A stretch of DNA of 64,000 nucleotides, from assembly GCA_942159475.1 (NCBI GenBank), contig OW804100.1, positions 10,166,646-10,230,645 of the forward strand. The letters are read 5' to 3'. This document shows, one piece after another, positions 9,254-42,345 of this stretch. Under the pieces are notes generated by a model. That model was given only the letters and a program-made list of their open reading frames with translations, was not told the DNA's origin and did not search any database. Origin of the DNA: Sthenelais limicola. Its lineage: Eukaryota > Annelida > Polychaeta > Phyllodocida > Sigalionidae. Numbering within the stretch: position 1 is the first letter of the stretch; each line of letters opens with the position of its first letter. The position numbers and the translations under genes are program-made.

Positions 9254-9333
9254 ATGGCTTGAATTACAATGGTTCCACTTTTTATCTCCGCAGCAATGGT
9301 ATTCCTAGGTTAATCCCGGCAATGCAGTCTTGG
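9254..9333 (+). repeat. 80-bp direct repeat, left copy, flanking the satellite
   Basis: This starts ATGGCTTGAATTACAATGG and ends GGCAATGCAGTCTTGG. It matches 25308-25387 in the same orientation over 80 bp with no gap and only a few mismatches. The satellite starts directly after it. Both copies contain a pyrimidine tract ending in GCAG|CAATGG, which resembles a splice acceptor. Confidence 0.9.
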
Positions 9334-9600
9334 GTAAGGCTAAGCTAGGTAAGGCTAAGGTTAGGTTAGGCTTAGGTTAGGTTAGACTTAGGTTAGGCAA
9401 GGCTAAGGTTAGGTTAGGCAAGGCTAAGGTTAGGTAAGGCTTAGGTTACGTTAGGCTTAGGCTAGGTAAGGCAAAGGTTAGGTTAGGCTTAGGCTAGGTA
9501 AGGCTAAGGCTAAGGTTAGGCTTAGGTTAGGTAAGACTAAGGTTAGGTAAGGCTAAGGTTAAACTAAGGCTAAGGTTAGGCTAAGGCTAAGGGGTTAGGC
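9334..9600 (+). repeat. Irregular telomere-like edge of the satellite (TTAGG/CTTAGG/CTAAGG words)
   Basis: Short degenerate words such as GGTTAGGTTAGGCTTAGG occur without a fixed period before the regular 23-bp units begin near 9600. They look like a decayed interstitial telomere-like or simple-repeat seed. A perfect TTAGGG array is not present. Confidence 0.7.
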
Positions 9601-14221: not shown

Positions 14222-14450
14222 TACGCCTCTGCTAGGAGGTTGGCTACGCCTCTGCTAGGAGGTTGGGTACGCCTCTGCTAGGAGGTTGGGTACGCCTCTG
14301 CTAGGAGGTTGGCTACGCCTCTGCTAGGAGGTTGGGTACGCCTCTGCTAAGAGGATGGGTACGCCTCTGCTAAGAGGTTGGGTACGCCTCTGCTAAGAGG
14401 TTGGGTACGCCTCTGCAAAGAGGTTGGGTACGCCTCTGCTAAGAGGTTGG
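14222..14450 (+). repeat. CCTCTGCT-variant block of the satellite, copy 1
   Basis: This is a run of 23-bp units in which GCTAAGGCT is replaced by GCCTCTGCT. The same block recurs near 16817-17043 and 19063-19331, each time after a block of CTACGG units. It is a marker of a higher-order repeat of roughly 2.2-2.6 kb. Confidence 0.85.
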
Positions 14451-16816
14451 CTACGCTAAGGCTAGGACGTTGGCTACGCTAAGGCTAGGGGGTTGGCTAC
14501 GCTAAGGCTAGGGGGTTGGCTACGCTAAGGCTAGGAGGTTGGCTACGCTAAGGCTAGGAGGTTTGCTACGCTAAGGCTAAGTAAGGCTTAGAGGTTGGCT
14601 ACGCTAAGGCTAAGTAAGGCTAAGAGGTTGGATACGCTAAGGCTAAGTAAGGCTGGCTACGCTAAGGCTAAGTAAGGCTAGGAGGTTGGCTACGCTAAGG
14701 CTAAGAGGATGGCTACGCTAAGGCTAGGACGTTGGCTACGCTAAGGCTAGGAGGTTGGCTACGCTAAGGCTAAGTAAGGCTAAGAGGTTGGCTACGGTAA
14801 GGCTAAGTAAGGCTAAGAGGTTCGGTACGCTAAGGCTAAGTAAGGCTAAGAAGTTGGCTAAGGCTAAGGCTAAGTAAGGCTAAGAGGTTGGGTACACTAA
14901 GGCTAAGTAAGGCTAAGAGGTTGGGTACGCTAAGGCTAAGTAAGGCTAGGAGGTTGGGTAAGCTAAGGCTAAGTAAGGCTAAGAGGTTGGCTAGGCTAAG
15001 GCTAAGTAAGGCTAAGAGGTTGGGTACGCTAAGGCTAAGTAAGGCTAAGAGGTTGGCTACGCTAAGGCTAAGTAAGGCTAGGAGGTTGGCTACGCTAAGG
15101 CTAAGTAAGGCTAGGAGGTTGGCTAGGCTAAGGCTAAGTAAGGCTAGGAGGTTGGCTACGCTAAGGCTAGGAGATTGGCTACGCTAAGGCTAAGTAAGGC
15201 TAGGAGGTTGGCTACGCTAAGGCTAGGAGGTTGGCTACGCTAAGGCTAGGAGGTTGGCTACGTTAAGGCTAGGAGGTTGGCTACGCTAAGGCTAGGAGGT
15301 TGGCTACGCTAAGGCTGGGGGATTGGCTACGCTAAGGCTAGGGGGTTGGCTACGCTAAGGCTAGGACAGTGGCTACGCTAAGGGTAGGACGTTGGCTACG
15401 CTAAGGCTAAGTAAGGCTAAGAGGTTGGCTACGCTAAGGCTAAGTAAGGCTAAGAGGTTGGGTACGCTAAGGCTAAGTAAGGCTAAGAGGTTGGGTACGC
15501 TAAGGCTAAGTAAGGCTAAGAGGTTGGCTACGCTAAGGCTAAGTAAGGCTAGGAGGTTGGCTACGCTAAGGCTAAGTAAGGCTAGGAGGTTGGCTACGCT
15601 AAGGCTAAGTAAGGCTAAGAGGTTGGGTAAGCTAAGGCTAAGTAAGGCTAAGAGGTTGGGTACGCTAAGGCTAAGTAAGGCTAAGAGGTTGGGTACGCTA
15701 AGGCTAAGTAAGGCTAAGAGGTTGGCTACGCTAAGGCTAAGTAAGGCTAGGAGTTTGGCTACGCTAAGGCTAAGTAAGGCTAGGAGGTTGGCTACGCTAA
15801 GGCTAAGTAAGGCTAGGAGGTTGGCTACGCTAAGGCTAGGAGATTGGCAACGCTAAGGCTAAGTAAGGCTAGGAGGTTGGCTACGCTAAGGCTAGGAGGT
15901 TGGCTACGTTAAGGCTAGGAGGTTGGCTACGCTAAGGCTAGGAGGTTGGCTACGCTAAGGCTAGGAGGTTGGCTACGCTAAGGCTGGGGGAGTGGCTACG
16001 CTAAAGCTAGGGGGTTGGCTACGCTAAGGCTAGGACAGTGGCTACGCTAAGGGTAGGACGTTGGCTACGCTAAGGCTAGGGGGTTGGGTACGCTAAGGCT
16101 AAGTAAGGCTAAGAGGTTGGGTACGCTAAGGCTAAGTAAGGCTAAGAGGTTGGCTACGCTAAGGCTAAGTAAGGCTAAGAAGTTGGCTACGCTAAGGCTA
16201 AGAGGTTGGCTACGCTAAGGCTAAGTAAGGCTTAGAGGTTGGCTACGCTAAGGCTAAGTAAGGCTAAGAGGTTGGCTACGCTAAGGCTAAGTAAGGCTAG
16301 GAGGTTTGCTACGCTAAGGCTAGGAGGTTTGCTACGCTAAGGCTAGGAGGTTTGCTACGCTACGGCTAGGAGGTTTGCTACGCTACGGCTAGGAGGTTGG
16401 CTACGCTACGGCTAGGAGGTTGGCTACGCTACGGCTAGGAGGTTGGCTACGCTACGGCTAGGAGGTTGGCTACGCTACGGCTAGGAGGTTGGCTACGCTA
16501 CGGCTAGGATGTTGGCTACGCTACGGCTAGGAGGTTGGCTACGCTACGGCTCGGAGGTTGGCTACGCTACGGCTCGGAGGTTGGCTACGCTACGGCTCGG
16601 AGGTTGGCTACGCTACGGCTCGGAGGTTGGCTACGCTACGGCTCGGAGGTTGGCTACGCTACGGCTCGGAGGTTGGCTACGCTACGGCTCGGAGGTTGGC
16701 TACGCTACGGCTAGGAGGTTGGCTACGCTACGGCTAGGAGGTTGGCTACGCTACGGCTAGGAGGTTGGCTACGCAACGGCTAGGAGGTTGGCTACGCAAC
16801 GGCTAGGAGGTTGGCT

Positions 16817-17043
16817 ACGCCTCTGCTAGGAGGTTGGCTACGCCTCTGCTAGGAGGTTGGGTACGCCTCTGCTAGGAGGTTGGGTACGCCTCTGCTAGGA
16901 GGTTGGCTACGCCTCTGCTAGGAGGTTGGGTACGCCTCTGCTAAGAGGATGGGTACGCCTCTGCTAAGAGGTTGGGTACGCCTCTGCTAAGAGGTTGGGT
17001 ACGCCTCTGCAAAGAGGTTGGGTACGCCTCTGCTAAGAGGTTG
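16817..17043 (+). repeat. CCTCTGCT-variant block of the satellite, copy 2
   Basis: The order of sub-variants matches copy 1: GGCTACG units, GGGTACG units, one GGATGGG unit, then a CTGCAAAG unit. It follows CTACGG and then CAACGG units. Confidence 0.85.
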
Positions 17044-19062
17044 GCTACGCTAAGGCTAGGACGTTGGCTACGCTAAGGCTAGGGGGTTGGCTACGCTAAG
17101 GCTAGGGGGTTGGCTACGCTAAGGCTAGGGGGTTGGCTACGCTAAGGCTAGGGGGTTGGCTACGCTAAGGCTAGGGGGTTGGCTACGCTAAGGCTAGGAG
17201 GTTGGCTACGCTAAGGCTAGGAGGTTGGCTACGCTAAGGCTAAGTAAGGCTTAGAGGTTGGCTACGCTAAGGCTAAGTAAGGCTAAGAGGTTGGATACGC
17301 TAAGGCTAAGTAAGGCTGGCTACGCTAAGGCTAAGTAAGGCTAGGAGGCTGGCTACGCTAAGGCTAAGAGGATGGCTACGCTAAGGCTAGGACGTTGGCT
17401 ACGCTAAGGCTAGGACGTTGGCTACGCTAAGGCTAAGTAAGGCTAAGAGGTTGGCTACGGTAAGGCTAAGTAAGGCTAAGAGGTTCGGTACGCTAAGGCT
17501 AAGTAAGGCTAAGAAGTTGGCTAAGGCTAAGGCTAAGTAAGGCTAAGAGGTTGGGTACACTAAGGCTAAGTAAGGCTAAGAGGTTGGGTACGCTAAGGCT
17601 AAGTAAGGCTAGGAGGTTGGGTAAGCTAAGGCTAAGTAAGGCTAAGAGGTTGGGTACGCTAAGGCTAAGTAAGGCTAAGAGGTTGGGTACGCTAAGGCTA
17701 AGTAAGGCTAAGAGGTTGGCTACGCTAAGGCTAAGTAAGGCTAGGAGGTTGGCTACGCTAAGGCTAAGTAAGGCTAGGACGTTGGCTACGCTAAGGCTAA
17801 GTAAGGCTAGGAGGTTGGCTACGCTAAGGCTAGGAGATTGGCTACGCTAAGGCTAAGTAAGGCTAGGAGGTTGGCTACGCTAAGGCTAGGAGGTTGGCTA
17901 CGTTAAGGCTAGGAGGTTGGCTACGCTAAGGCTAGGAGGTTGGCTACGCTAAGGCTGGGGGATTGGCTACGCTAAGGCTAGGGGGTTGGCTACGCTAAGG
18001 CTAGGACAGTGGCTAAGCTAAGGGTAGGACGTTGGCTACGCTAAGGCTAAGTAAGGCTAAGAGGTTGGATACGCTAAGGCTAAGTAAGGCTAAGAGGTTG
18101 GGTACGCTAAGGCTAAGTAAGGCTAAGAGGTTGGCTACGCTAAGGCTAAGTAAGGCTAAGAGGTTCGGTACGCTAAGGCTAAGTAAGGCTAAGAAGTTGG
18201 CTAAGGCTAAGGCTAAGTAAGGCTAAGAGGTTGGGTACACTAAGGCTAAGTAAGGCTAAGAGGTTGGGTACGCTAAGGCTAAGTAAGGCTAAGAGGTTGG
18301 GTAAGCTAAGGCTAAGTAAGGCTAAGAGGTTGGGTACGCTAAGGCTAAGTAAGGCTAAGAGGTTCGGTACGCTAAGGCTAAGTAAGGCTAAGAGGTTGGC
18401 TACGCTAAGGCTAAGTAAGGCTAAGAGGTTGGGTACGCTAAGGCTAAGTAAGGCTAAGAGGTTGGGTACGCTAAGGCTAAGTAAGGCTAAGAGGTTGGCT
18501 ACGCTAAGGCTAAGTAAGGCTAGGAGGTTTGCTACGCTAAGGCTAGGAGGTTTGCTACGCTACGGCTAGGAGGTTTGCTACGCTACGGCTAGGAGGTTTG
18601 CTACGCTACGGCTAGGAGGTTGGCTACGCTACGGCTAGGAGGTTGGCTACGCTACGGCTAGGAGGTTGGCTACGCTACGGCTTGGAGGTTGGCTACGCTA
18701 CGGCGAGGAGGTTGGCTACGCTACGGCTTGGAGGTTGGCTACGCTACGGCTAGGAGGTTGGCTACGCTACGGCTAGGAGGTTGGCTACGCTACGGCTAGG
18801 AGGTTGGCTACGCTACGGCTAGGAGGTTGGCTACGCTACGGCTAGGAGGTTGGCTACGCTACGGCTAGGAGGTTGGCTACGCTACGGCTAGGAGGTTGGC
18901 TACGCTACGGCTAGGAGGTTGGCTACGCTACGGCTCGGAGGTTGGCTACGCTATGGCTAGGAGGTTGGCTACGCTACGGCTAGGAGGTTGGCTACGCAAC
19001 GGCTAGGAGGTTGGCTACGCAACGGCTAGGAGGTTGGCTACGCAACGGCTAGGAGGTTGGCT

Positions 19063-19331
19063 ACGCCTCTGCTAGGAGGTTGGCTACGCCTCTGCTAGGA
19101 GGTTGGGTACGCCTCTGCTAGGAGGTTGGGTACGCCTCTGCTAGGAGGTTGGGTACGCCTCTGCTAGGAGGTTGGGTACGCCTCTGCTAAGAGGATGGGT
19201 ACGCCTCTGCTAGGAGGTTGGGTACGCCTCTGCTAAGAGGCTGGGTACGCCTCTGCTAAGGGGCTGGGTACGCCTCTGCTAAGAGGTTGGGTACGCCTCT
19301 GCAAAGAGGTTGGGTACGCCTCTGCTAAGAG
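19063..19331 (+). repeat. CCTCTGCT-variant block of the satellite, copy 3
   Basis: This is the third copy, slightly longer than the other two because of extra GAGGCTGGG and GGGGCTGGG units. It again ends with the CTGCAAAG unit and a return to CTAAGG units. Confidence 0.85.
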
Positions 19332-20344
19332 GTTGGCTACGCTAAGGCTAGGACGTTGGCTACGCTAAGGCTAGGACGTTGGCTACGCTAAGGCTAAGTA
19401 AGGCTAAGAGGTTGGGTATGCTAAGGCTAAGTGAGGCTAAGAGGTTGGGTACGCTAAGGCTAAGTAAGGCTAAGAGGTTGGGTACGCTAAGGCTAAGTAA
19501 TGCTAAGAGGTTGGGTACGCTAAGGTTAAGAGGTTTGGTACGCTAAGGCTAAGTAAGGCTAAGAGGTTGGGTACGCTAAGGCTAAGTAAGGCTAGGAGGT
19601 TGGCTACGCTAAGGCTAGGAGGTTGGCTACGCTAAGGCTAGGAGGTTGGCTACGCTAAGGCTAGGAGGTTGGCTACGCTAAGGCTAGGAGGTTGGCTACG
19701 CTAAGGCTAGGACGTTGGCTACGCTAAGGCTAGGGGGTTGGCTACGCTAAGGCTAGGGGGTTGGCTACGCTAAGGCTAGGGGGTTGGCTACGCTAAGGCT
19801 AGGGGGTTGGCTACGCTAAGGCTAGGGGGTTGGCTACGCTAAGGCTAGGGGGTTGGCTACGCTAAGGCTAGGGGGTTGGCTACGCTAAGGCTAGGACGTT
19901 GGCTACGCTAAGGCTAGGGGGTTGGCTACGCTAAGGCTAGGGGGTTGGCTACGCTAAGGCTAGGGGGTTGGCTACGCTAATGCTAGGGGGTTGGCTACGC
20001 TAAGGCTAAGTAAGGCTAAAAGGTTGGCTACGGTAAGGCTAAGAGGTTGGGTACGCTAAGGCTAAGTAAGGCTAAGAGGTTGGGTACGCTAAGGCTAAGT
20101 AAGGCTAAGAGGTTGGGTAAGCTAAGGCTAAGTAAGGCTAAGTAAGGCTAAGAGGTTGGGTACGCTAAGGCTAAGTAAGGCTAAGAGGTTGGGTACGCTA
20201 AGGCTAAGTAAGGCTAGGAGGTTGGCTACGCTAAGGCTAAGTAAGGCTAGGAGGTTGGCTACGCTAAGGCTAAGTAAGGCTAAGAGGTTGGGTACGCTAA
20301 GGCTAAGTAAGGCTAAGAGGTTGGCTATGCTAAGGCTAAGTAAG

Positions 20345-22139
20345 GCTAAGAGGTTGGGTACGCTAAGGCTAAGTAAGGCTAAGAGGTTGGGTAAGCTAAG
20401 GCTAAGTAAGGCTAAGAGGTTGGGTACGCTAAGGCTAAGTAAGGCTAAGAGGTTGGGTACGCTAAGGCTAAGTAAGGCTAAGAGGTTGGGTAAGCTAAGG
20501 CTAAGTAAGGCTAAGAGGTTGGGTACGCTAAGGCTAAGTAAGGCTAAGAGGTTGGCTACGCTAAGGCTTAGTAAGGCTAGGAGGTTGGCTACGCTAAGGC
20601 TAAGTAAGGCTAGGAGGTTGGCTACGCTAAGGCTAAGTAAGGCTAAGAGGTTGGGTACGCTAAGGCTAAGTAAGGCTAAGAGGTTGGCTATGCTATGGCT
20701 AAGTAAGGCTAAGAGGTTGGGTACGCTAAGGCTAAGTAAGGCTAAGAGGTTGGCTACGCTAAGGCTAAGTAAGGCTAGGAGGTTGGCTACGCTAAGGCTA
20801 GGAGGTTGGCTCCGCTAAGGCTAGGAGGTTGGCTACGCTAAGGCTAGGAAGTTGGCTACGCTAAGGCTAGGGGGATGGCTACGCTAAGGCTAGGGGGTTG
20901 GCTACGCTAATGCTAGGGGGTTGGCTACGCTAAGGCTAAGTAAGGCTAAAAGTTGGCTACGGTAAGGCTAAGAGGTTGGGTACGCTAAGGCTAAGTAAGG
21001 CTAAGAGGTTGGGTACGCTAAGGCTAAGTAAGGCTAAGAGGTTGGGTAAGCTAAGGCTAAGTAAGGCTAAGAGGTTGGGTACGCTAAGGCTAAGTAAGGC
21101 TAAGAGGTTGGGTACGCTAAGGCTAAGTAAGGCTAAGAGGTTGGGTACGCTAAGGCTAAGTAAGGCTAAGAGGTTAGGTACGCTAAGGCTAAGTAAGGCT
21201 AAGAGGTTGGCTACGCTAAGGCTAAGTAAGGCCAAGAGGTTGGGTACGCTAAGGCTAAGTAAGGCTAAGAGGTTGGCTACGCTAAGGCTAGGAGGTTGGC
21301 TACGCTAAGGCTAGGAGGTTGGCTACGCTAAGGCTAAGAGGTTGGCTACGCTAAGGCTAAGTAAGGCTAAGAGGTTGGGTACGCTAAGGCTAAGTAAGGC
21401 TAAGAGGTTGGGTACGCTAAGGCTAAGTAAGGCTAAGAGGTTGGCTACGCTAAGGCTAAGTAAGGCCAAGAGGTTGGGTACGCTAAGGCTAAGTAAGGCT
21501 AAGAGGTTGGCTACGCTAAGGCTAGGAGGTTGGCTACGCTAAGGCTAGGAGGTTGGCTACGCTAAGGCTAGGGGGTTGGCTACGCTAAGGCTAGGACGTT
21601 GGCTACGCTAAGGCTAGGGGGTTGGCTACGCTAAGGCTAGGGGGTTGGCTACGCTAAGGCTAGGGGGTTGGCTACGCTAAGGCTAGGGGGTTGGCTACGC
21701 TAAGGCTAGGGGGTTGGCTACGCTAAGGCTAGGGGGTTGGCTACGCTAAGGCTAGGGGGTTGGCTACGCTAAGGCTAGGAGGTTGGCTACCCTAAGGCTA
21801 GGAGGTTGGCTACGCTAAGGCTAGGACGTTGGCTACGCTAAGGCTAGGAGGTTGGCTACGCTAAGGCTAAGTAAGGCTAAGAGGTTGACTACGGTAAGGC
21901 TAAGTAAGGCTAAGAGGTTGGGTACGCTAAGGCTAAGTAAGGCTAAGAGGTTGGCTACGCTAAGGCTAAGTAAGGCTAAGAGGTTGGGTACGCTAAGGCT
22001 AAGTAAGGCTAAGAGGTTGGGTACGCTAAGGCTAAGTAAGGCTAAGAGGTTGGCTACGCTAATGCTAAGTAAGGCTAAGAGGTTGGGTACGCTAAGGCTA
22101 AGTAAGGCTAAGAGGTTGGCTACGCTAAGGCTAAGTAAG
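20345..22139 (+). repeat. 1,795-bp tandem segmental duplication inside the satellite, copy 1
   Basis: Rare marker variants recur at a constant +1,795 bp: the TATGCTATGG unit at 20686 and 22481, the GGCCAAG units, a GGCTCCGC unit, and a run of GGGGG units. By eye only a handful of bases differ between copies (for example TTAGGTACG at 21174 against TTGGGTACG in copy 2). The edges are approximate. Confidence 0.85.
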
Positions 22140-23934
22140 GCTAAGAGGTTGGGTACGCTAAGGCTAAGTAAGGCTAAGAGGTTGGGTAAGCTAAGGCTAA
22201 GTAAGGCTAAGAGGTTGGGTACGCTAAGGCTAAGTAAGGCTAAGAGGTTGGGTACGCTAAGGCTAAGTAAGGCTAAGAGGTTGGGTAAGCTAAGGCTAAG
22301 TAAGGCTAAGAGGTTGGGTACGCTAAGGCTAAGTAAGGCTAAGAGGTTGGCTACGCTAAGGCTAAGTAAGGCTAGGAGGTTGGCTACGCTAAGGCTAAGT
22401 AAGGCTAGGAGGTTGGCTACGCTAAGGCTAAGTAAGGCTAAGAGGTTGGGTACGCTAAGGCTAAGTAAGGCTAAGAGGTTGGCTATGCTATGGCTAAGTA
22501 AGGCTAAGAGGTTGGGTACGCTAAGGCTAAGTAAGGCTAAGAGGTTGGCTACGCTAAGGCTAAGTAAGGCTAGGAGGTTGGCTACGCTAAGGCTAGGAGG
22601 TTGGCTCCGCTAAGGCTAGGAGGTTGGCTACGCTAAGGCTAGGAAGTTGGCTACGCTAAGGCTAGGGGGATGGCTACGCTAAGGCTAGGGGGTTGGCTAC
22701 GCTAATGCTAGGGGGTTGGCTACGCTAAGGCTAAGTAAGGCTAAAAGTTGGCTACGGTAAGGCTAAGAGGTTGGGTACGCTAAGGCTAAGTAAGGCTAAG
22801 AGGTTGGGTACGCTAAGGCTAAGTAAGGCTAAGAGGTTGGGTAAGCTAAGGCTAAGTAAGGCTAAGAGGTTGGGTACGCTAAGGCTAAGTAAGGCTAAGA
22901 GGTTGGGTACGCTAAGGCTAAGTAAGGCTAAGAGGTTGGGTACGCTAAGGCTAAGTAAGGCTAAGAGGTTGGGTACGCTAAGGCTAAGTAAGGCTAAGAG
23001 GTTGGCTACGCTAAGGCTAAGTAAGGCCAAGAGGTTGGGTACGCTAAGGCTAAGTAAGGCTAAGAGGTTGGCTACGCTAAGGCTAGGAGGTTGGCTACGC
23101 TAAGGCTAGGAGGTTGGCTACGCTAAGGCTAAGAGGTTGGCTACGCTAAGGCTAAGTAAGGCTAAGAGGTTGGGTACGCTAAGGCTAAGTAAGGCTAAGA
23201 GGTTGGGTACGCTAAGGCTAAGTAAGGCTAAGAGGTTGGCTACGCTAAGGCTAAGTAAGGCCAAGAGGTTGGGTACGCTAAGGCTAAGTAAGGCTAAGAG
23301 GTTGGCTACGCTAAGGCTAGGAGGTTGGCTACGCTAAGGCTAGGAGGTTGGCTACGCTAAGGCTAGGGGGTTGGCTACGCTAAGGCTAGGACGTTGGCTA
23401 CGCTAAGGCTAGGGGGTTGGCTACGCTAAGGCTAGGGGGTTGGCTACGCTAAGGCTAGGGGGTTGGCTACGCTAAGGCTAGGGGGTTGGCTACGCTAAGG
23501 CTAGGGGGTTGGCTACGCTAAGGCTAGGGGGTTGGCTACGCTAAGGCTAGGGGGTTGGCTACGCTAAGGCTAGGAGGTTGGCTACCCTAAGGCTAGGAGG
23601 TTGGCTACGCTAAGGCTAGGATGTTGGCTACGCTAAGGCTAGGAGGTTGGCTACGCTAAGGCTAAGTAAGGCTAAGAGGTTGACTACGGTAAGGCTAAGT
23701 AAGGCTAAGAGGTTGGGTACGCTAAGGCTAAGTAAGGCTAAGAGGTTGGCTACGCTAAGGCTAAGTAAGGCTAAGAGGTTGGGTACGCTAAGGCTAAGTA
23801 AGGCTAAGAGGTTGGGTACGCTAAGGCTAAGTAAGGCTAAGAGGTTGGCTACGCTAATGCTAAGTAAGGCTAAGAGGTTGGGTACGCTAAGGCTAAGTAA
23901 GGCTAAGAGGTTGGCTACGCTAAGGCTAAGTAAG
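22140..23934 (+). repeat. 1,795-bp tandem segmental duplication inside the satellite, copy 2
   Basis: This is the second copy of the block described at 20345-22139. It reproduces the same order of about 60 variant units. One difference is GGATG at 23607 where copy 1 has GGACG. Confidence 0.85.
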
Positions 23935-24254
23935 GCTAAGAGGTTGGCTACGCTAAGGCTAAGTAAGGCTAGGAGGTTGGCTACGCTAAGGCTAGGAGAT
24001 TGGCTACGCTAAGGCTAAGTAAGGCTAGGAGGTTGGCTACGCTAAGGCTAGGAGGTTGGCTACGCTAAGGCTAGGAGGTTGGCTACGCTAAGGCTAGGAG
24101 GTTGGCTACGCTAAGGCTAGGACGTTGGCTACACTAAGGCTAGGGGGATGGCTACGCTAAGGCTAAGAGGTTGGCTACGCTAAGGCTAAGTAAGGCTAAG
24201 AGATTGGCTACGCTAAGGCTAGGAGGTTGTTCAAGGGTTAAGGCTAAGAGTTCA

Positions 24255-25901: not shown

Positions 25902-26237
25902 TATTCCAGAGATAATATGATGTCATAATTTATATTTGATAATTGGTAAATAGTCATTCGTTATAACTTCAACCATCGTTTATGTTCGACGTTGTTCCAG
26001 TTCCTGTTATATTTGAATATTTTTCATGTTTATTATCATTTGAATTTTATCCTGATTTATATTGCAAATACTTCGATGTATCCGTTTATTATTTATTAAG
26101 GTCTCCTTGAGACTTCTGTATGTTCAGGTTGGGGAACACGGACCTCAACCTCTCCAAGGAGTTCAGGAATAAAAACTGGAATTGCAAAAGTATTTTCTCT
26201 ATTCTTATTTAACTCGGAGGAGCGTTAAAACATATAT

Positions 26238-26728
26238 TATCCACCCTATGCCTTTGATTCGGAGATTAGTTCTTTCCCCCACTATCCTTATTATATATAT
26301 TCATAATATTATATTCTCACAGAAGGAAACCATACGATCACGATAATATTATTATTCAAATATCGATAGTGTTTAAGCCCGGAAGAGATCCGGAAGCGAT
26401 ATCACAGAAGTGCAACCATGGCTCATTGACTCAATGGAAAGAACATAGGCAATACTAACAACATAAGGACAGCTCATCTCAGCTTTATCCACCCTATGCC
26501 TTTGATTCGGAGATTAGTTCTTTCCCCCACTCTCCTTATTAAATATATTCATAATATTATATTCTCACAAAAGGAAACCATACGATCGCGATAATATTAT
26601 TATTCAAATATCGATAGTGTTTAAGCCTGGAAGAGATCCGGAGGCGATATCACAGAAGTGCAATCATGGCTCATTGACTCAATGGAAAGAACATAGGCAA
26701 TACTAACAACATAAGGACAGCTCATCTC
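26238..26728 (+). repeat. 248-bp tandem duplication (two copies)
   Basis: Copy 1 (26238-26480) and copy 2 (26486-26728) are nearly identical and in direct orientation, with only a few substitutions. Each starts at TTATCCACCCTATGCC and ends at AGCTCATCTC. The content is AT-rich and non-coding. The duplication appears recent and may belong to the adjacent Crypton remnant or another repeat. Confidence 0.9.
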
Positions 26729-27283
26729 GAAACGTCAGACCATACTGTTATATAAATTAATTCGCAAAAACGCATATTCAAATCGACTCCTCATTCTACA
26801 CTAATTTCAACCGAATACAAGAGTGATTCAACCAGTTGGTAATCATTTTCCACAATCATTTTTCTGAAACAATACCAACCTACGTATATAACCCCTTCTT
26901 AGTCTAGTGCTTGGTATACACGTTGAGGTCAGTTTAGCCCTTAGCCCTGTTTTGTGTTCAAGTTTAACGAAGTTTGTAAACTGTTTTTTATCTGTAGCGT
27001 AAAACTGGAGGCCGTTATTATCCTTGTGTCTGACTGTTTATATAAGTAACAGCTTTGATCTTCAACTTTGATCACCCTAAATTAAGTTATTCAGTTGATA
27101 TGTATTTATATGGCTGCTAGCTACGGTGCGGTCTGTCGAAGTTTTATCCATCGAGGTTGCGGGGGGAGACTGAGGGGCCGAGCGCAGCATAGCCCCGAGG
27201 TCTCTGTTATGTAACATTACGTAACATTGTGTAACCTCATTATATTTATATTAACCTTAACATGTCCCTCCGCAACCGAAGCC

Positions 27284-27594
27284 GGTGTTTTGGGGGAGAC
27301 ATTTAGTTGGGACGAAGAAACATTGTAGTTAATGTTCAAATTGATATTGCCATGGATTGTAGCTGAGGCAAACATTCCACTGCTTGTTTGCAGTAGCCTT
27401 TCTACCACTTGGCCTTGCCTGTTATTTCCGGTTGATGGGACCAGGGCCACGGTTGACGAGGCGGTTGATGAAGCCAAAGGGAAATCGGGCAATGTTCGTT
27501 CCTGGTGGGGAATATTTTGGGTGAAAATGCCCGACAGCCGGAGGGACTGTCTCCCTTCCTCGTCTTAGTTAGTTTTTCCTTAAACGGCTGTCAC
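27284..27594 (-). repeat. Internally deleted tandem copy of the Crypton 3' region
   Basis: Positions 27284-27481 repeat 27658-27857, and 27482-27594 repeat 28287-28395. The two parts are adjacent here but are separated by about 430 bp (the catalytic region) in the longer copy. Order and orientation are conserved, so this is a second copy lacking the active-site block. Divergence between copies is low. Confidence 0.85.
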
Positions 27595-27779
27595 TAACTG
27601 TCATGGTAGCTGCCATGTTTTGAACAAAAATAAACCGACTTCCATTTACTTCTCTAAGCCCGGTGTTTTTGAGGAGACATTTAGTTGGGACGAAGAAACA
27701 TTGTAGTTAATGTTCAAATTGATATTGCCATGGATTGTAGCTGAGGCAAACATTCCACTGCTTGTTTGCAGTAGCCTTT

Positions 27780-28301
27780 CTACCACTTGGCCTTGCCTGT
27801 TATCTCCGGTTGATGGGACCAGGGCCATGGTTGACGAGGCGGTTGATGAAGCTGAAGGGCCGGGGATCGGGAGGGCAGCTCTGGTAGGAGGAGCAGATAG
27901 AGTCGAAGAACTGTTTTTTTCCCCTGGTTGGTAGAAGCAGATGTGATAATGTCCAACATAGCCCTTTGTTGTTCAATGTTGGCTGTCGTATAGGCAGCTA
28001 GGCTATTGACATTTTTATGCCCTGTAATCTGGCATACCAAGATGGGGGGACACCATGCAGAGTCAATCAGATTCTGACAGGTATTTTTCCTGAGGCTGTG
28101 ATTTGTTATTTTACCTGGTAAATTGCAACTTTTCACCATATTAGGCACGATTTTGCCAATCGAATTCTTTCCCATAGGCTGGGCAGCGTACCAAATAGGA
28201 TTTGATTCCTTTATTTTTGTTTTTACGCACAGATAGAAGGGGCCGTTGGCTTCCTTCATTGTGTCTGGCCTGTGTTGAGCAAAATCTTTGTAATCGGGCA
28301 A
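27780..28301 (-). pseudogene. Crypton tyrosine-recombinase catalytic C-terminal fragment
   Basis: This open segment holds the recombinase active-site region: PFYLCVKT, WYAAQPMG, then NHSLRK (the H-x-x-R box), ITGHKN (second His) and SLAAY with the presumed nucleophilic tyrosine. DUF3504 domains in ZMYM2/3/4, QRICH1 and KCTD1 descend from such elements. The upstream part of the protein lies in a different frame (a junction near 28285), so this is a pseudogene fragment. The final residues run out of frame relative to the conserved tail, which suggests another indel near 27880. Confidence 0.75.
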
Positions 28302-29049
28302 CGTTCGTTCCTGGTGGGGAATATTTTGGGTGAAAATGCCCGACAGCCGGAGAGACTGTCTCCCTTCCTCGTCTTAGTTAGTTTTTCCTTAAACGATAGA
28401 TATTCTCTGCCTTGTTCATCTGTGCACAACTTAACATCTGACCAAGTCATTTGTCTGCTTTCATGGCTTCCACGGAAACCAAATCCTTGGGTCAGAAAGA
28501 AAAACAAGGTATTTTGCATCGTTCATATTCCCCAACTCTCCCGATGAACATAGCTTATCAATCATTGTATCTGAAAGAGCCTCTGCTCGGTTTGGTTTAT
28601 TTCCAAGGCCCATAGATTTCAAATCTTTCCTTTTTGCGTGCAACACTTCACGAGATGAGCGGAATTTATCACTGGTGATGACGCTTTCAGGATAGTTATG
28701 TTCGCGGAGATATCTGAAAAAAAATTATTTGAAATAAATAATCTTGTTTTACCTCATTTAAATAGCATTATAACAGAAAATATCATGATCGATTACTAGA
28801 ATAGCTAAAGTTTTCTTGTCAGATTTCACTTTTTCTCTCTCAACACTAGACTCTCTTTACTTAATCGTTTATTCTTACCTGTCGATGGCATATTTTCTTC
28901 TACATTTTGCTCTTCTCTCAGCCAATCGACAAACCTTCTGGTGGCCTGAAATTATTGAAAAAGAAAATATTGCAATAAATATAAATGCTACCGTACTGTT
29001 TTTTTATTTGGAATATATGCCAATTTTGATTTCATCACGATTTATACGC

Positions 29050-32531: not shown

Positions 32532-35500
32532 ATGGCTGTAACTGGCGTTCATTTATCATCAGATGCCTACATGGTATGTTTAGCCCATGCCTTTTCTACC
32601 GAAAAGGAAGAGATCATGGGTTTATTGATAGGAGAGGTAAGTGTTTTCTGTTATGAGCGATAATAGGTGTTGCCCAGTCATATCCCGCTCTCTTCCCGTA
32701 TGAATAGTCATTAAGTCTATTTACAAAAAAGAAAACATTTCATGCGGTTTCCAGGGCCATGTTAACTTAAGTTTGATGGTCAAATTAATCTTACGTTAGT
32801 ACAACCATAGACCGTATAAATAAACGTCTATGGATTGGTACAACGATAGGGGCCGTCCATAAATTACATGTGAAATTAGGTAACGTTCGAGGGTGTGTGT
32901 CAGTGTGTGTGGGGGGGGGGGGGGGGGGGAAGGGGGGGGGGTGTCCGACCATGTGTTACGGTCCCATAGGTATAACATTTGTTACAAATCCCGGGGGGGG
33001 GGGGGGGGTCTACATTTAATTTGAGGCAAAAAAGCGTTACATAATTTATGGACAGCCCCATACCCTGAAATTCACCTCTCGAAGTGGAACTGTCTGTAGA
33101 CCTGTAGACTTGACTAGCTGGCGAAATGGCATAATTAAATAATTATGTACTACATAACACCAAAGCTAGAGAACACGCCTCCCGTCCATCGGCGCTGCAG
33201 CTATGGTACCCAGACACTTCGGTCCAAAACCGCGTCGGCCCAGGCACTTGGACCTCGTCGGCCCAAGGCTTAGGCCGCGTCGGCCCAAGGGGTAGACCGC
33301 GTCGGCCCACTAGGTAAATATAAAGGTATCAACTAAAAACTAGGAGTCAGAATGCTAGTGGGATATAACTACTGCCTATACTGACCTAGGCTACTGCCTA
33401 TACTGACCTAGGACCACACATTTAAGGTTAGGTTTAGGGTTATAGTTAGCATCAGTATCTTGGGGGTGGGCCAAGCCGGCCTTGGGGGTGGGCCGAGCCG
33501 TCCTTGGGGGTGGGCCGACGCGGTTTTGGAGGTGGGCCAACGCGGTTTTGGAGGTGGGCCGACGGGGCGCACAGGTGGGCCGACGGGGCTTGGGCCGACG
33601 CGGTGTTGGGCTGACATGCCTATGATTCGCAGCTATTACCCAACATTGGACAGGATCCGGAAAAAACCCTATATAACCCATTCACATACACCCTTAACTT
33701 ATCTGAGTGCCTAAGTCAGACCCTTAGGGAGAGATTTGACCAAGATTTTCTGTACGTAGCCTACATGGTCCCTACTACATGACGAGTATAGTTAGTCGCT
33801 ACCGGTACATGTTAAACGTATGAATAATCCTCTTTCAGATTGATGAACGCCGAATATGCCAGATATCAGCGGTCATTATGTTACGGAGATCTGACAAACA
33901 GCCTGACAGGGTAGAAATATCGCCTGAGCAACTTTCAGCTGCTTCCACACATGCCGAAGTAAGCGCAGGCAATTTTTATACATCCTCAAACAGGGATGCT
34001 AAATGTCAGACTTTCAGCTGATTTCCGATTTCATCAATTTCCAAGAAAATCAATACTTTCACTATCATTTATCAAGTTAAGTTGGCATATTCAATCTTGG
34101 GTGCTAGTAATCCTGATGACATATCTATTGCAGATGCTTGCTCGAGATCTTAACAGACCAATGCGAGTTGTTGGCTGGTACCACTCGCATCCACACATCA
34201 CCGTTTGGCCCTCACACGTAGGTGAGTCAACCTTTCGACAAATACAAATAGGCTATACAATTACAAATATTTATTTTCATTCAAAATGGTGTTTTGTGAA
34301 ATATTTTCATCCTAACATAATATTCTTGGGGGTATTTACTTTAATAATCCGAGGTTTCCCTTGTGTGTATTTGGTAGATGTTCAAACACAAGCCATGTAC
34401 CAAATGATGGATGAAGGCTTTGTTGGAATAATATTCTCAGTGTTCAATGAAGACAAGGCTACCAAGGTGAGATATTTTATATTACTGTAAACGTATTAAT
34501 GTTCGCGCAGTATTTATTTTCGCGATTTTCGCGCACACCCTTATGTGCGCGAATTTAAATCCTGCGCGAACCTATAATTATTACATAAACAAAGTGTGAG
34601 GCTTCCTTGCTGCGCGAATTTAAATCCGCACGAAAAGGTGTCAAAGTACTTTATCCGCGCGAAAATAAATACGTTTACAGTATCAAATTTACTTACGTTT
34701 GGTTATGACTATTTCCATCTTTATTGAAGATTATTTTTTTGCGAAACGTTTAACCATTATATGGATGATGTTTTTTCTTATACATTTTACGCTTATATAG
34801 ATGATCACTGAGGTCTATAATCATCAGATATGAACTTAAACGATTCTTTATTAACCCATGGGTCATATATAAATCTTAGTAATTGTTTCTGTACACAGTA
34901 AATTATTTTCTTACTAACAAGTTGCTCTTTTATTTGCAGACAAATCGTTTAGAGATAACATGTTTCCAGTCTGTTAATCAGAGTCCAGAAGGTCAAGCAC
35001 CTCAGTAAGTCATCTCAGCAGTTTTACAAATCAACCCCGCGCAAACTCCCCATGGACGTCTAATCATAACACGACACTTCTTTTCTAAGTCTTGAAAACA
35101 AGAATTCTTGCTCAATGTGGCGAAATTTTAACCATATATCACCCAAGGCAGTTTAAATCAACTTTCAGGTTTGCTGTTTGTAATTATTTCAACCTTTTGG
35201 AAATGCTTGCATACCACGCGTATATAAATGACAGACTTCTGTTCCTGACTCACTTTGTAATGAACCTCAATAACTTCAGATTTGAATTAGATCCGATCTT
35301 TACTTCGTCTATTGGTGGCTTGCATTTTGCCTGGTCACGTCTGTATATGGACACTGAGAGATTTGTGCCATTTGCAGATACATGCGCCTGGAGATCCCGT
35401 TTTACATTGTACCACAGAGTAAAGTAAGTGCCCCCTGCCTGCAGAGTTTGGTAGATTTACCGCGCATTCTCAGCCAGGAGGAGGAGGAGGCCTACATCAA

Positions 35501-35567
35501 GACGACCCAGTGTCCTGATCTAGACCTCATCTGTCAGATTCACAATGGTTCAGGTGAGTTCTCGCCT

Positions 35568-35599
<32 letters not shown>

Positions 35600-36436
35600 A
35601 CTTTTTATTGAGTCGGGGGGGGGGGGGGGCAATTCTCCTTGGTTTAGCAGGTCTGCACGCCCTCCTTTCAATATCTTACATTCATTCAGCTAGCGGACAA
35701 TGCCACCTTCGTCATTGACTGAAGGATGGCTCGCTGCTCTTTCTTCATTAGCAATTTTACAATAGGCAAGATGTTAACATATTACATTTATCTTCTATAT
35801 TGATCTCAGCTGATAATGTACATTGTCAATCTATGAAATTATTATCAATCCATATAGCATTGGTCCTGACATGGTTTTTATCATTTGGTTCTATGATTTT
35901 ATGGGCCACCGTCTGGAGGCGGTTCCAGGAGTATGTTCTCTGCTTTTTAGGGCTCGTGATGCTGAAAAATTACCTTATTTTCTTCTGACCTGTGAAGGGT
36001 TGATGCTGAGTTCACTTATTAAAATTATATAAACTTGTAATTGTTGAATTGTAAATTTTATAACTGAGAACTGATGTAGTCATGTGTAATTATTGTATTA
36101 CAATATTCAGGGCATCTACACCTCAGGTTCATTAACTTATGTATTAGTTAAAGGGTTGTAAATCGAGACGTCCATGTGTCATTCCCAAGCGATTGTCTTG
36201 GTTTTTATTTCGAGTGTATTTTCATGGAATCTATTTGTATTTTTTCAGTGTACACAAGGTCTCTTTGTCGCATTATGGAGGTGATGAGTGGCCCTTTGCT
36301 GCAGACATTACAAAGTCGACGAGAGAGGAACGAGCAGAAAAAAGATGATCTTGAAGCGGAAAAAGCAGAATTATTAAAACTATTAGCTGAAAGTGAACGG
36401 ATGTCGATATCCCCCTCTAAAGTTACTGCCGTATAA
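32532..36436 (+). CDS. BRCC3: BRCC36 (Lys63-specific deubiquitinase, BRCA1-A/BRISC subunit)
   Basis: Seven coding exons: 32532-32636, 33839-33958, 34134-34221, 34378-34466, 34940-35004, 35378-35553, 36249-36436. Frames close at every junction and give 276 aa, slightly shorter than vertebrate forms (about 290-316). BRCC36 is a JAMM/MPN+ zinc metalloprotease that cleaves K63-linked ubiquitin in the nuclear BRCA1-A complex and the cytoplasmic BRISC complex. The active site is intact: Glu27 in EKEEIMGLLIG, His92 and His94 in YHSHPHITVWPS, and Asp105 completed across an exon junction. RRSDK, DRVEISPEQLSAAST and YQMMDEGFVG are family blocks. The C-terminal exon is a coiled coil (RRERNEQKKDDLEAEKAELL) as expected for complex assembly. 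The loop after exon 1 is shorter than in human. Introns hold two MITEs, a foldback element and a LINE-like 3' end. Confidence 0.96.
32849..33059. mobile_element. MITE with GGGGC(C/T)GTCCATAAATTA inverted ends (BRCC3 intron 1)
   Basis: The left end GGGGCCGTCCATAAATTA and the right end (reverse complement GGGGCTGTCCATAAATTA) differ at one base. A 3-bp ATA flanks both sides (32846-32848 and 33060-33062), consistent with a target-site duplication. The interior holds long G runs (about 32911-32940 and 32993-33008). Confidence 0.8.
33190..33650. mobile_element. Foldback element with GGCCGACGCGG-type minisatellite arms (BRCC3 intron 1)
   Basis: The left arm (about 33205-33313) has repeats of CCGCGTCGGCCCA. 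The right arm (about 33462-33620) has repeats of the reverse complement TGGGCCGACGCGG. The centre contains CCTAGGACCAC and TTAAGGTTAGGTTTAGGG. The centre matches the reverse complement of the element at 41676-42071, although the arms differ. Arm ends are approximate. Confidence 0.75.
33380..33412 (+). repeat. Short tandem repeat (CTGCCTATACTGACCTAGG twice)
   Basis: Two direct copies of a roughly 22-bp word lie inside the foldback element, just left of its conserved core. Confidence 0.7.
34483..34682. mobile_element. Palindromic MITE with CTGTAAACGTA ends (BRCC3 intron 4)
   Basis: The ends TACTGTAAACGTA and TACGTTTACAGTA are inverted, and the element has internal CGCGAATTTAAATC repeats. The TA on both sides fits a TA target duplication (Tc1/mariner-like), which would put the ends at 34485 and 34680. 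The roughly 200-bp sequence is rich in CGCG and non-coding. Confidence 0.8.
35568..35630 (-). mobile_element. (GATA)n plus LINE-like 3' terminus and poly-G tract (BRCC3 intron 6)
   Basis: A GATA microsatellite (35568-35599) runs into AAACTTTTTATTGAGTC and 15 G. Read in reverse, GACTCAATAAAAAGTTTATC followed by TATC repeats resembles the 3' end of CR1/L2-type LINEs, which end in short tandem repeats rather than poly(A). How far the LINE body extends to the right is uncertain. Confidence 0.45.
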
Positions 36437-37043
36437 CGTGAGTGGAGTGCTGTGGATAGCTTACGCTGGGTGCACGTGCATATCAAGTTGTAGACTATCA
36501 CACACGTTGTCGCACAGCTGATAGGACTTGCCGGAGCGCACTGATACTTTTTGAGTAATGTCTTATGTAACGATCGATCTATTCCACCGACGATGTGACT
36601 TTCTTATCGACGGGGATACTGTATATTATTGCTTACTGGATATATTACTGTAACGGGTGAAGAAGTGACCACTTCATTTATAGCATTATATTATTGGAAG
36701 TCTGCCATCATTGGAATATGATACATGGTTCTCTGGACGATGAAAATACATAGCTCCGACTCCTGGACACATTCCTCATTTTCGCATCCTTCTTCGTGGT
36801 TGATATATTCATCTATTTGTTATCAACATTGTATGTACATTGTCCCTAGCTTACTCCATCTTCATAAATCATCCCCCCTTTGTACTTTGTTACATGATAT
36901 GTAAATTCAGTTTAAATAATTATGTGTTTAAAAACTTGGACATATTTCCCTGTTAACAACCTGCCAGTAACTACAATTAAGAAGTCTGTGAAAAGGCAAC
37001 TAGTCAAACCGGCTTAGGGATGCTGATTCTGATGTATATAGTG

Positions 37044-37049
37044 AATAAA
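37044..37049 (+). terminator. Poly(A) signal AATAAA of BRCC3
   Basis: This is the canonical hexamer 608 bp after the BRCC3 stop. The intervening DNA has no other gene and is the likely 3' UTR. Confidence 0.55.
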
Positions 37050-38031
37050 CTATTTAGGTTAATCCATCTTATATCGTTCTTTGATGTTCACATTAGGACA
37101 GAAATAAGTATTAAAAATCACGATTTTATCAACACGTGCCTTTATACTTATATAAGTATAATAAATTAGTACTTATATAATATAATAAATAATACATTAG
37201 ATTCAAGTACGCCAGTGGATTAGAACTGCTGTGGATCAATAAGATAATATTTATTACATATTCTAATGGTTTGAATTTTGATATTTATTTCACCCTTGAT
37301 ATGCTCGACGAATTGAAATACAAATAGGCTGTGGATATTGGTAAGTTGGTCAATATTGGCAGTGTCGGGTGGACTGTCAAAGCGTACTATAGTAGTGTAA
37401 GGTAATGCACCGATTGATTTATCAACTTATAATGATGAATACACATCAATGATAAGAGATGTTATGAAGAATATATAAGAGTAAGAGAGACTTGGAAATA
37501 AGCTTCAAGCCTGGAGTACAATCTTACTCCAAGTGATCATCCTGAGGGAACTCATGGCTCCCCCTCTCCAGATGCATGGTAGCAGGCCGACATGACACTA
37601 CGATGAATATTTATGAATTCATCAAATGACCGTCACTCATTAGGTGTGTGGGTGAAATAGGTCGAATTTTTGGGTCAGGCATTCTATCATCTAAGTCATT
37701 GGAAAGCTTTGAGGTTAGGCAGGTCCTTCTTTGAGGCTATGTTTAGGAAATTCGAACGAAGCGAAATGGGTAATGAAATATGTTGAAGTATTTATAAATA
37801 CCTCAAAATGGCCGTAAATCATCATTATTAAAGTGTATGGTAAAATAAACACAGAACTCGTTTCTCGCCGTCGTGATATTCTATGCATGCGGGAGTACCC
37901 ACCCTGCATTGGATATCACTCCCGCCGCGAATTCCGGGTAGTTCTATCTATTTGCCAAAAGTTAGAGACGTGGGATATAAAATAATGAATAATATTTCCA
38001 TGACCAATTGTAAAATGTAGCTTTATTTAAT
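37050..38031. other. Tail-to-tail intergenic region between BRCC3 and NKAP
   Basis: AT-rich, no ORF with recognisable features, no repeat identified. Confidence 0.4.
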
Positions 38032-38037
38032 GCTCTT
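38032..38037 (-). terminator. Poly(A) signal of NKAP
   Basis: TTTATT on the plus strand is AATAAA on the minus strand, 200 bp after the NKAP stop codon. Confidence 0.5.
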
Positions 38038-38236
38038 TCGGCAAAGTATTTCACTGCAGGGATCACTAGCCATTAGCATTTAGCAATATATAATTAAACA
38101 TTTTTAAACTGATAGTGGCGAGGATTCTTTTCTTTAAATGGCAGTTTCAATTAATCAATGGCACGAGGTCCATCACCTATGTACAATACAAATTCATTCG
38201 GATTCCCTTCAAACAATTAGTTGAATTTTCTGGACA

Positions 38237-41118
<2,882 letters not shown>

Positions 41119-41262
41119 CTTACAAGCTGTACCGGTACTGCCGATTCTGAAAATAATAAAACATTAAGTGATAAACAACACAATTTCAACTTCAGTAAGT
41201 AATGCAATGCAGATATAATTAAAATAATACTAATAGTCTTGTCGATCAGACATTTACCTTAC

Positions 41263-41300
41263 CTGGCGGGAGTAATCCTATTGCCAGTTTGAATAGGCCT
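41263..41300 (-). other. Probable 5' non-coding exon of NKAP (upper limit unknown)
   Basis: On the minus strand CCCGCCAG|GTAAGG forms a strong donor at 41263/41262, 115 bp upstream of the acceptor (TTATTTTCAG at 41147) of the first coding exon. The exon may extend into the inverted repeat at 41301-41650. Confidence 0.45.
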
Positions 41301-41316
41301 ATACATAGTATTCACA

Positions 41317-41324
41317 TGACGTCA
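41317..41324. promoter_or_regulatory. Perfect CRE palindrome TGACGTCA (1)
   Basis: This is the full ATF/CREB consensus site, about 200 bp upstream of the NKAP ATG, inside the left arm of the inverted repeat. Binding is inferred from the motif only. Confidence 0.5.
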
Positions 41325-41627
41325 CCCCAGTCAGCGGCTATCCTCACTGGCAGCCATACTGTGTGGCTACACACAGAGCTGGAAGCACCAGATCGACAGG
41401 CTTTCCGTTTCAAATGTTTGATAATGGCGATTATACTCATTATTCCACCATGACACACTAACAAATTACAATCGAGCCTATCAGCTTACTTTATATTACA
41501 TTCGCTAAAACTTTCAGAGGTGAAAACGGCTGGAAAACAGCATTTTCGAGGCTTGGAGCACACATGTCCAGCGTACCATACGTTTACAAAGCTTGACCCA
41601 CAGTATGGCGAGCCGCGGCCAGCGCCG

Positions 41628-41635
41628 TGACGTCA
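41628..41635. promoter_or_regulatory. Perfect CRE palindrome TGACGTCA (2)
   Basis: A second full ATF/CREB consensus, 311 bp from the first, in the right arm of the same inverted repeat and so mirror-placed. Confidence 0.45.
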
Positions 41636-41675
41636 GTGAACACTATGTATATGGCTACAGTACCGTACCAGCGTA

Positions 41676-42071
41676 GGAGGCGGGACCCAAGCGCCCCAGA
41701 ATCATAGCGCCCAGATCCTAGCATCTAGCGCCGGGACTGTAGTGCCCCAAGATCCTAGTGCCCCAGCCTTGGGTTGAAGGGCCCACGACCTGGATCGAAG
41801 CGCCCAGACCGTTAACACTAAACAATACCAAAACTAACCCTAAACCTAACCTTAAATTGGTGGTCCTAAGTCAGTTAAAGGGGTAGTAAACTGTCCAGAA
41901 TAAAAACAGATTAATATAAGTAATTAATTAACTAGTAAACGGTCTGGGCACTTCAATCCAAGCCGCGGGCGCTTCAATCCAAGGCTGGGGCACTTCGACT
42001 CCGGGCGCTAGACGCTAGGGTCTGGGCCAGGTTTGGGCGCTACGATCCTGGGGCGCTTGGGTCCCACCTCC
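41676..42071. mobile_element. Foldback element with GCGCCC/GGGCGC minisatellite arms (NKAP-XRRA1 intergenic)
   Basis: The left arm 41676-41814 (GGAGGCGGGACCCAAGCGCC onward) and the right arm 41938-42071 (ending GGCGCTTGGGTCCCACCTCC) are inverted, imperfect copies over about 135 bp, both bounded inside by AACGGTCTGG. The loop holds ACCCTAAACCTAACCTTAA and GGTGGTCCTAAGTCAG. That loop is the reverse complement of the core of the 33190-33650 element. No ORF is inside. Confidence 0.85.
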
Positions 42072-42188
42072 GAACTGCCTGAGCCGACTTGTGTATGAAC
42101 CGTAGCCTACTGCTAACAATAAACATTAGATTCTAGTAGGGTCAATAGAAGTCTGAACGTCTATTGTCAGTATTGTATCGTAGGTTGT

Positions 42189-42345
42189 ATCATTGGGCCC
42201 CGGCCTTGGACGTTTGGGCCCAAACTAAACGACGTTTAAATTGGGCCCGTACTTGGACGATTGGCCCCGCCGGGCCTTGGACGTTTGGGCCCCGGTCTTG
42301 GACGTTTGGGCCCCCAGCCTTTGGACGTTTGGGCCCTGGCCAGCC
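42189..42345 (+). repeat. Minisatellite of CTTGGACGTTTGGGCCC units
   Basis: There are about five degenerate units of 17-33 bp with the core TTGGACGTTTGGGCCC, separated by GGCC-rich linkers. The style is the same as the arms of the neighbouring foldback element, but no inverted partner was seen. Confidence 0.8.

What the first reader, a model, noticed from the sequence alone, without database searches (positions are those of the whole stretch)
33190..42345. A foldback family with a conserved core but arms rebuilt from different GGCC-rich minisatellites
The elements at 33190-33650 and 41676-42071 lie in opposite orientations. Their cores match (CTGAC(C/T)TAGGACCAC and TTAAGGTTAGGTTTAGGG), yet the arms use different units: GGCCGACGCGG in one, GCGCCC/AAGC in the other. 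A one-armed array of TTGGACGTTTGGGCCC lies at 42189-42345. The arms seem to be replaced or diversified while still forming an inverted pair, which is not ordinary MITE behaviour.
Basis: partly seen in the sequence, partly recalled or inferred. Interest (0 to 1): 0.78.

Follow-up and report, generated by a model that had tools for sequence, protein, structure and literature searches.

The report
Jumping-DNA families sharing one middle
Two hairpin-shaped repeats and a one-armed array in an animal-like chromosome belong to several small jumping-DNA families that share one middle segment but carry different repeat-built arms; jumping DNA with such arms is known, while unlike arms around a common middle are a less familiar twist.

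Summary
The window lies in a 1.13-Gb animal-like genome that holds many relatives. The 33-kb element (33205-33628) belongs to a young, homogeneous family: 32 of 38 copies with both ends carry perfect 8-9 bp target duplications. The 42-kb element (41676-42071) belongs to an older family (9 of 19 perfect). The one-armed array matches the arms of a third core-bearing family. An 18-mer of the core occurs 1,564 times, reversed control 0.

Within a family the arms are constant, and matching within a copy is no better than between copies (p 0.18). The core also occurs without detectable inverted arms. Much of the arms' faster change is CpG decay. But between families homologous middles (86% over 116 nt) carry arm units with no detectable similarity, and the window's own 42-kb copy has its outer right arm replaced by an inverted copy of its left end (1 of 38).

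Best reading: a superfamily of foldback-like non-autonomous DNA transposons with fast-turning minisatellite arms. No transposase was found. New variant of a known kind.

The parts
33197..33204 (.). left target duplication GCAGCTAT of element A
   Evidence: identical to 33629-33636
33205..33628 (+). element A, family of about 380 bp; this copy 424 bp, 1.84% from the consensus over aligned positions
   Evidence: ends defined on 41 copies; divergence
33629..33636 (.). right target duplication GCAGCTAT of element A
33229..33309 (+). left arm array of A, 22-bp units
33459..33568 (+). right arm array of A, 22-bp units
33369..33412 (+). exact 22-bp duplication in the middle of A
33391..33442 (+). core shared with element B, 52 nt, 85%
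41676..42071 (-). element B (atypical, nearly symmetrical copy; no target duplication seen by eye)
   Evidence: family
41835..41886 (-). core of B
41755..41809 (-). inner right arm of B, canonical
   Evidence: alignment to the B right-arm consensus
41676..41748 (-). outer right arm of B: inverted copy of the left end (aligned 73 nt; unambiguous for the outer 57 nt, 41676-41732)
   Evidence: 65 of 73 and 53 of 57 matches, counted on the alignment
42189..42345 (+). array C, one-armed; units match the arms of family I (L106, L107)
   Evidence: 0 of 1000 shuffles; L107
32532..32636 (+). probable first coding exon of a BRCC36-like gene; the next exon starts at 33839, so A lies in the intron between
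   Evidence: JAB domain downstream; homologues

Best explanation
A, B and the family represented by array C belong to one superfamily of short non-autonomous, foldback-like cut-and-paste DNA transposons. Shown: discrete elements of roughly 0.26-0.42 kb with ends beginning GG and an 8-9 bp target duplication; a homologous middle of about 55 nt in all types and up to 116 nt between some, poor in CpG and with degenerate TTAGGG repeats; in several families, inverted arms of 21-22-bp tandem units that are constant within a family. Shown: arms change through CpG decay and gain or loss of units, and one copy (window B) has an outer arm replaced by an inverted copy of the opposite end. Inferred: a transposase supplied in trans binds the unit arrays and cuts the target with an 8-9 bp stagger; over longer times arrays turn over or are exchanged between elements, so that families keep an alignable middle but not alignable arms.
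For: A: 32 of 38 copies with both ends have perfect 8-9 bp duplications, 0 of 1406 mismatched flank pairs do; copies 0-3.6% from consensus (26 copies). B: 9 of 19 perfect and 13 of 19 with at most one mismatch, control 1 and 3 of 342. Family I: L106 carries GCCGACAT on both sides; the D element of L030 lies inside another element's arm between copies of CTTGGGCC. Middles of nine types alignable in 36 of 36 pairs above 100 shuffles. Core 18-mer 1,564 sites, reversed control 0. CpG arm sites 272/1146 different from consensus, other arm sites 173/3685, middle 84/2946 (23 B copies); 37/158, 32/502, 26/516 in four B copies found by chance. Window B arm replacement.
Against: No transposase or autonomous partner was found: ten MULE loci of 62 matches show no kinship, others were not searched. 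Left and right ends within a family are only weakly similar. Many core sites lack detectable inverted arms. Samples other than A and B are small (D 4, I 2, G 1), B copies were picked by core similarity, and unit sequences were chosen by eye.
Confidence: 0.65

Rival explanations
1. The core is an independent module (perhaps a bound site with telomere-like repeats, itself able to form a 22-bp tandem unit) that was captured by or swapped among otherwise unrelated transposon families; arms and ends belong to the host elements.
For: The core occurs in at least three arm types and in sites without detectable arms; 22-bp tandem copies of the core 18-mer exist and one such element lies in a B copy (L043); B and D middles are 86% alike while their units are unrelated.
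Against: Homology of the middle reaches beyond the core (B-D 116 nt, A-D 107 nt); families share the 8-9 bp duplication length and GG starts; A, G and D units are related.
Confidence: 0.22
2. All arms are plain descendants of one ancestral 21-22-bp unit; CpG decay and array homogenisation made them unalignable, with no replacement or exchange.
For: Same period in all; A-G and G-D 0 of 1000, A right-G 5 of 1000, B-C 3 of 1000, I-A right 8 of 1000; strong CpG decay.
Against: B-D 914 of 1000 and A-B 115 to 386 of 1000 although non-CpG arm sites within B change hardly faster than the middle; the replacement in window B.
Confidence: 0.3
3. Local hairpins and arrays made by replication slippage or template switching, not transposons.
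For: Arms are tandem arrays with variable unit number; window B is nearly symmetrical and shows no target duplication.
Against: Near-identical dispersed copies on several chromosomes with perfect duplications; nested insertion with duplication (L030).
Confidence: 0.02

Closest known systems
Galileo (foldback-like, P superfamily, Drosophila; PMC3573991, passages seen)
   Same: Long internally repetitive inverted arms; subfamilies; tandem repeats in the arms that expand and contract; chimeric copies without matching target duplications; copies whose central region comes from another subfamily.
   Different: There 7-bp target duplications, arms of about 0.3-1.2 kb with a roughly 210-bp repeat in one group, and transposase-bearing copies. 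Here 8-9 bp, 21-22-bp units, elements of about 0.4 kb and no coding copy found.
Tetris (foldback element, Drosophila virilis; PMC4079207, passages seen)
   Same: Non-autonomous foldback with tandem repeats in the arms, 8-10 bp duplications, variable middle, repeats also found as separate arrays; no autonomous copy found there either.
   Different: About 220-bp repeats, arms up to 1.7 kb and middle of variable composition; here the middle is the shared part.
Foldback (FB) of Drosophila and TU elements of sea urchins (recalled, not read)
   Same: Inverted arms made of short tandem subrepeats, duplications of about 8-9 bp (recalled).
   Different: As far as recalled, copies share arms rather than the middle; no sequence comparison was made.
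Ordinary MITEs
   Same: Short, non-coding, numerous, with target duplications.
   Different: Arrays of 21-22-bp units in the arms, weakly matching extreme ends, and homologous middles between families whose arms are not alignable.

Membership tests
Foldback-like DNA transposon (structural class) | inverted arms built of tandem subrepeats | tested here: met
   A and B in the window; families D and I
Foldback-like DNA transposon (structural class) | insertion with a target duplication | tested here: met
   A 32 of 38; B 9 of 19 perfect
Foldback-like DNA transposon (structural class) | transposition by an identifiable transposase in trans | not tested
   no mobiliser identified; only MULE loci looked at
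Mutator/MULE superfamily | target duplication of about 9 bp (8-11; recalled) | tested here: met
   8-9 bp; not specific, other superfamilies fit too
Mutator/MULE superfamily | ends shared with elements that carry a MULE transposase | tested here: inconclusive
Merlin superfamily | 8-9 bp duplication (recalled) and kinship with Merlin-transposase elements | tested here: inconclusive
   duplication length fits; the family search did not complete
P superfamily / Galileo | 7-8 bp duplication and P-type transposase | tested here: inconclusive
   18 of 32 perfect A duplications are 9 bp, which fits poorly; no transposase search done
Helitron / Helentron carrying satellite-like arrays | no target-site duplication (recalled) | tested here: not met
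   8-9 bp duplications
MITE | short non-coding copies with conserved terminal inverted repeats | tested here: inconclusive
   short, non-coding and with target duplications, but the extreme ends match weakly and the inverted part is an array

The most novel reading that the evidence does not exclude
A modular transposon superfamily in which a core of 55 nt or more with telomere-like repeats is the heritable part, while the arms, and so presumably the transposase specificity, are swapped: by exchange between inverted copies (as in window B) or by capture of the core by other elements. Ends and arms would evolve like cassettes around one lasting middle, the reverse of the usual rule that the ends of non-autonomous elements are the conserved part.
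Probability: 0.25. Interest if true: 0.7.

Novelty: new variant of a known kind. Interest (0 to 1): 0.42.

Why it matters
If families of non-autonomous elements can exchange arms while keeping a common middle, classifying such elements by their ends would miss kinship and hide how they change mobiliser. With 1,564 exact core sites and a young (A) and an older (B) family side by side in one genome, the turnover of arm arrays could be dated and tested directly. The CpG result is a caution: part of an apparently conserved core against variable arms is plain mutation bias.

Tried and rejected
Core conserved by selection: a first alignment of 30 B copies gave arms 17-19% (non-CpG) and core 3.4% different, but truncated copies inflated the arms and the copies had been picked by core similarity. 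With full copies and with four chance-found copies the non-CpG difference is small. Per-copy rebuilding of arms: not supported for B and excluded for A by near identity. Helitron: target duplications. RNA-gene or regulatory function of the hairpin: not pursued; no Rfam search was made. MULE as mobiliser: no link in 10 of 62 matches. Relatives outside this genome: exact core patterns gave 0 hits in viral contigs and in the prokaryote genome collection; no other eukaryote genome could be searched. Even density along the genome: 75 kb sampled at fixed steps (15 x 5 kb) held no match to A, B, C or D at E 1e-5. A regular-expression search for further core sites timed out and was replaced by BLAST.

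Organism: the named BRCC36-like proteins among the 120 listed of 862 are animals; the species was not determined. Literature: five searches; among the titles listed I recognised none about these families. Two papers were opened, only at the passages shown.
Full report
Observation. The window (G000:C7:10166646-10230645, an assembly of 1.13 Gb in 161 contigs) contains the two elements and the array as described. The cores agree over 52 nt at 85% in opposite orientation. The arms are inverted within each element and are tandem arrays of about 22-bp (A) and 21-bp (B) units. A BRCC36-like gene with introns lies around A: probable exon 1 at 32532-32636, next exon from 33839, JAB domain downstream, and the named homologues among the 120 listed are animal proteins. 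Element A is therefore intronic.

Element A. A 70-nt query from its core gave 730 candidates; the 40 scored were all 100% identical over 70 nt. With the window copy, which is not among the 40, I examined 41 copies. Ends are sharp: GGTACCCAGAC... and ...GTGCCTATGAATC. Of 38 copies with both ends, 32 have a perfect duplication of 8 (14 copies) or 9 bp (18), 5 have one mismatch and 1 has none; 3 further copies lack an end; 0 of 1406 mismatched flank pairs reach 8 bp. Lengths run from 322 to 424 bp, 26 of 38 being 380 bp. The 26 copies with both ends held at that time differ 0-3.6% from their consensus. The window copy has GCAGCTAT on both sides. This is a recently active, homogeneous, non-coding family whose arms are nearly the same in every copy apart from unit number. 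The 40 hits were picked by perfect core identity, so older members may be missing.

Element B. An 87-nt core query gave 1911 candidates, 40 scored at 94-100% (L029 is the window copy). I read 38 of the 40 (30 loci and 8 of the 10 others). Canonical ends are GGAGGCGGGACCC... and ...CTACAGTCCTGCGATC. Nineteen copies show both ends: 9 have a perfect 8-mer duplication and 13 at most one mismatch; mismatched pairs give 1 and 3 of 342. This family is older.

The window's B copy is unusual. In element orientation its right arm is canonical for 55 nt (41809-41755); the outermost 73 nt (41748-41676) align to the inverted left end with 65 matches, the outer 57 nt of them unambiguously (53 matches; counted on the alignment); the canonical right end is missing. 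A loose search flagged two other copies (L032, L040), but both keep the canonical right end. The copy shows no target duplication by eye and folds nearly end to end. It looks like the product of an exchange with an inverted relative or of a template switch; chimeric Galileo copies likewise lack matching duplications (PMC3573991, passages).

Are arms rebuilt per copy? For 23 B copies with both arms, the score of left arm against inverted right arm is 40.6 within and 39.1 between copies (p 0.067); without the window copy 39.3 and 38.5 (p 0.18). So arms are a family trait.

Other families. A BLAST of cores against everything held by then found 100 sites: 78 central, 2 in the window and 20 met by chance in flanks. 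Of the 19 chance sites that could be scored, 6 have inverted arms above the maximum of 100 shuffles; the other 13 include damaged copies, copies cut by the locus end and sites with no arm-like sequence. Type D has units like GGTCCGAGTCCACTAACCCAGT (L030, L035, L037; L032 damaged); type G (L044) has A-like ends and A-like units with a D-like core. The core 18-mer CTTAGGACNACCAATTTA occurs 1,564 times in the genome (759 + 805; reversed control 0). The first six places of that list by coordinate, not a random draw, gave one B copy with a shortened arm (L105), two copies of a family I with inverted arms of the C type (L106, L107) and three sites without detectable inverted arms (L104, L108, L109). 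L106 has GCCGACAT on both sides, and the D element of L030 lies in another element's arm between copies of CTTGGGCC. Array C of the window matches the unit of family I (0 of 1000 shuffles); no core lies beside it, so its membership is inferred from the unit.

Relation of middles and arms. The middles of nine types are alignable in 36 of 36 pairs above the maximum of 100 shuffles, at 81-96% over 33-116 nt. Units fall into related pairs A-G and G-D (0 of 1000 each), B-C (3 of 1000) and I-C (0 of 1000); I with the A right unit reaches 8 of 1000; B-D (914), A-B (115 to 386), A-D (107 to 320) and I-B (132) are not significant. An earlier test with another A unit gave A-left with B 3 of 120. The units were chosen by eye, the tests are many and they are weak for 21-22 letters.

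Why arms change faster. In 23 full B copies CpG sites of the arms differ from the consensus at 272/1146, other arm sites at 173/3685 and the middle at 84/2946. In four B copies met by chance the figures, summed from the call, are 37/158, 32/502 and 26/516. So most of the contrast between arms and core inside family B is CpG decay; the middle has hardly any CpG. That weakens any claim of special constraint on the core. It does not explain B against D, whose middles are 86% identical while their units are unrelated; turnover or replacement of arrays is needed there.

Mechanism. Shown: insertion with an 8-9 bp duplication, families with fixed arms, CpG decay, change in unit number, one arm replacement. 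Inferred: a trans-acting transposase that binds the arrays. The duplication length fits Mutator or Merlin among others (recalled); 62 MULE matches exist in the genome, but the 10 loci read show no kinship, and the Merlin search did not complete. No mobiliser is named.

Verdict.

Noticed in passing
window 9333-24229: A tandem array of about 14.5 kb with 23- and 33-bp units (GGCTAGGAGGTTGGCTACGCTAA), strongly strand-asymmetric (GC skew about 0.35-0.44 over most of it).
   Followed up: no
window 4429-5387 and 5636-6040; L109: Two further inverted-repeat pairs (44 nt at 82% and 36 nt at 83%). By eye, L109 holds a stretch like the outer arm at 4429-4472 close to a core site.
   Followed up: no
window 27217-28373, minus strand: Tyrosine-recombinase-like ORF (DUF3504 and Phage_integrase hits); the ORF at 27217-27564 repeats its first residues.
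   Followed up: no
L001-L078 against L079-L093: Core sites cluster: 20 extra sites in roughly 187 kb of fetched A and B loci but no family match in 75 kb sampled at fixed steps; exact 18-mer sites average about one per 0.72 Mb. The detection thresholds differ between these figures.
   Followed up: partly
L043 (reverse complement, about 873-1450): An element with three core units, two in tandem at 22 bp, lies inside a B copy between copies of CCCAGACCG (9 bp, by eye); tandem 22-bp core copies also occur elsewhere (for example C1:51317764, 51317786, 51317808).
   Followed up: partly
window 26237-26728: A 248-bp sequence in tandem, two copies at 97%.
   Followed up: no
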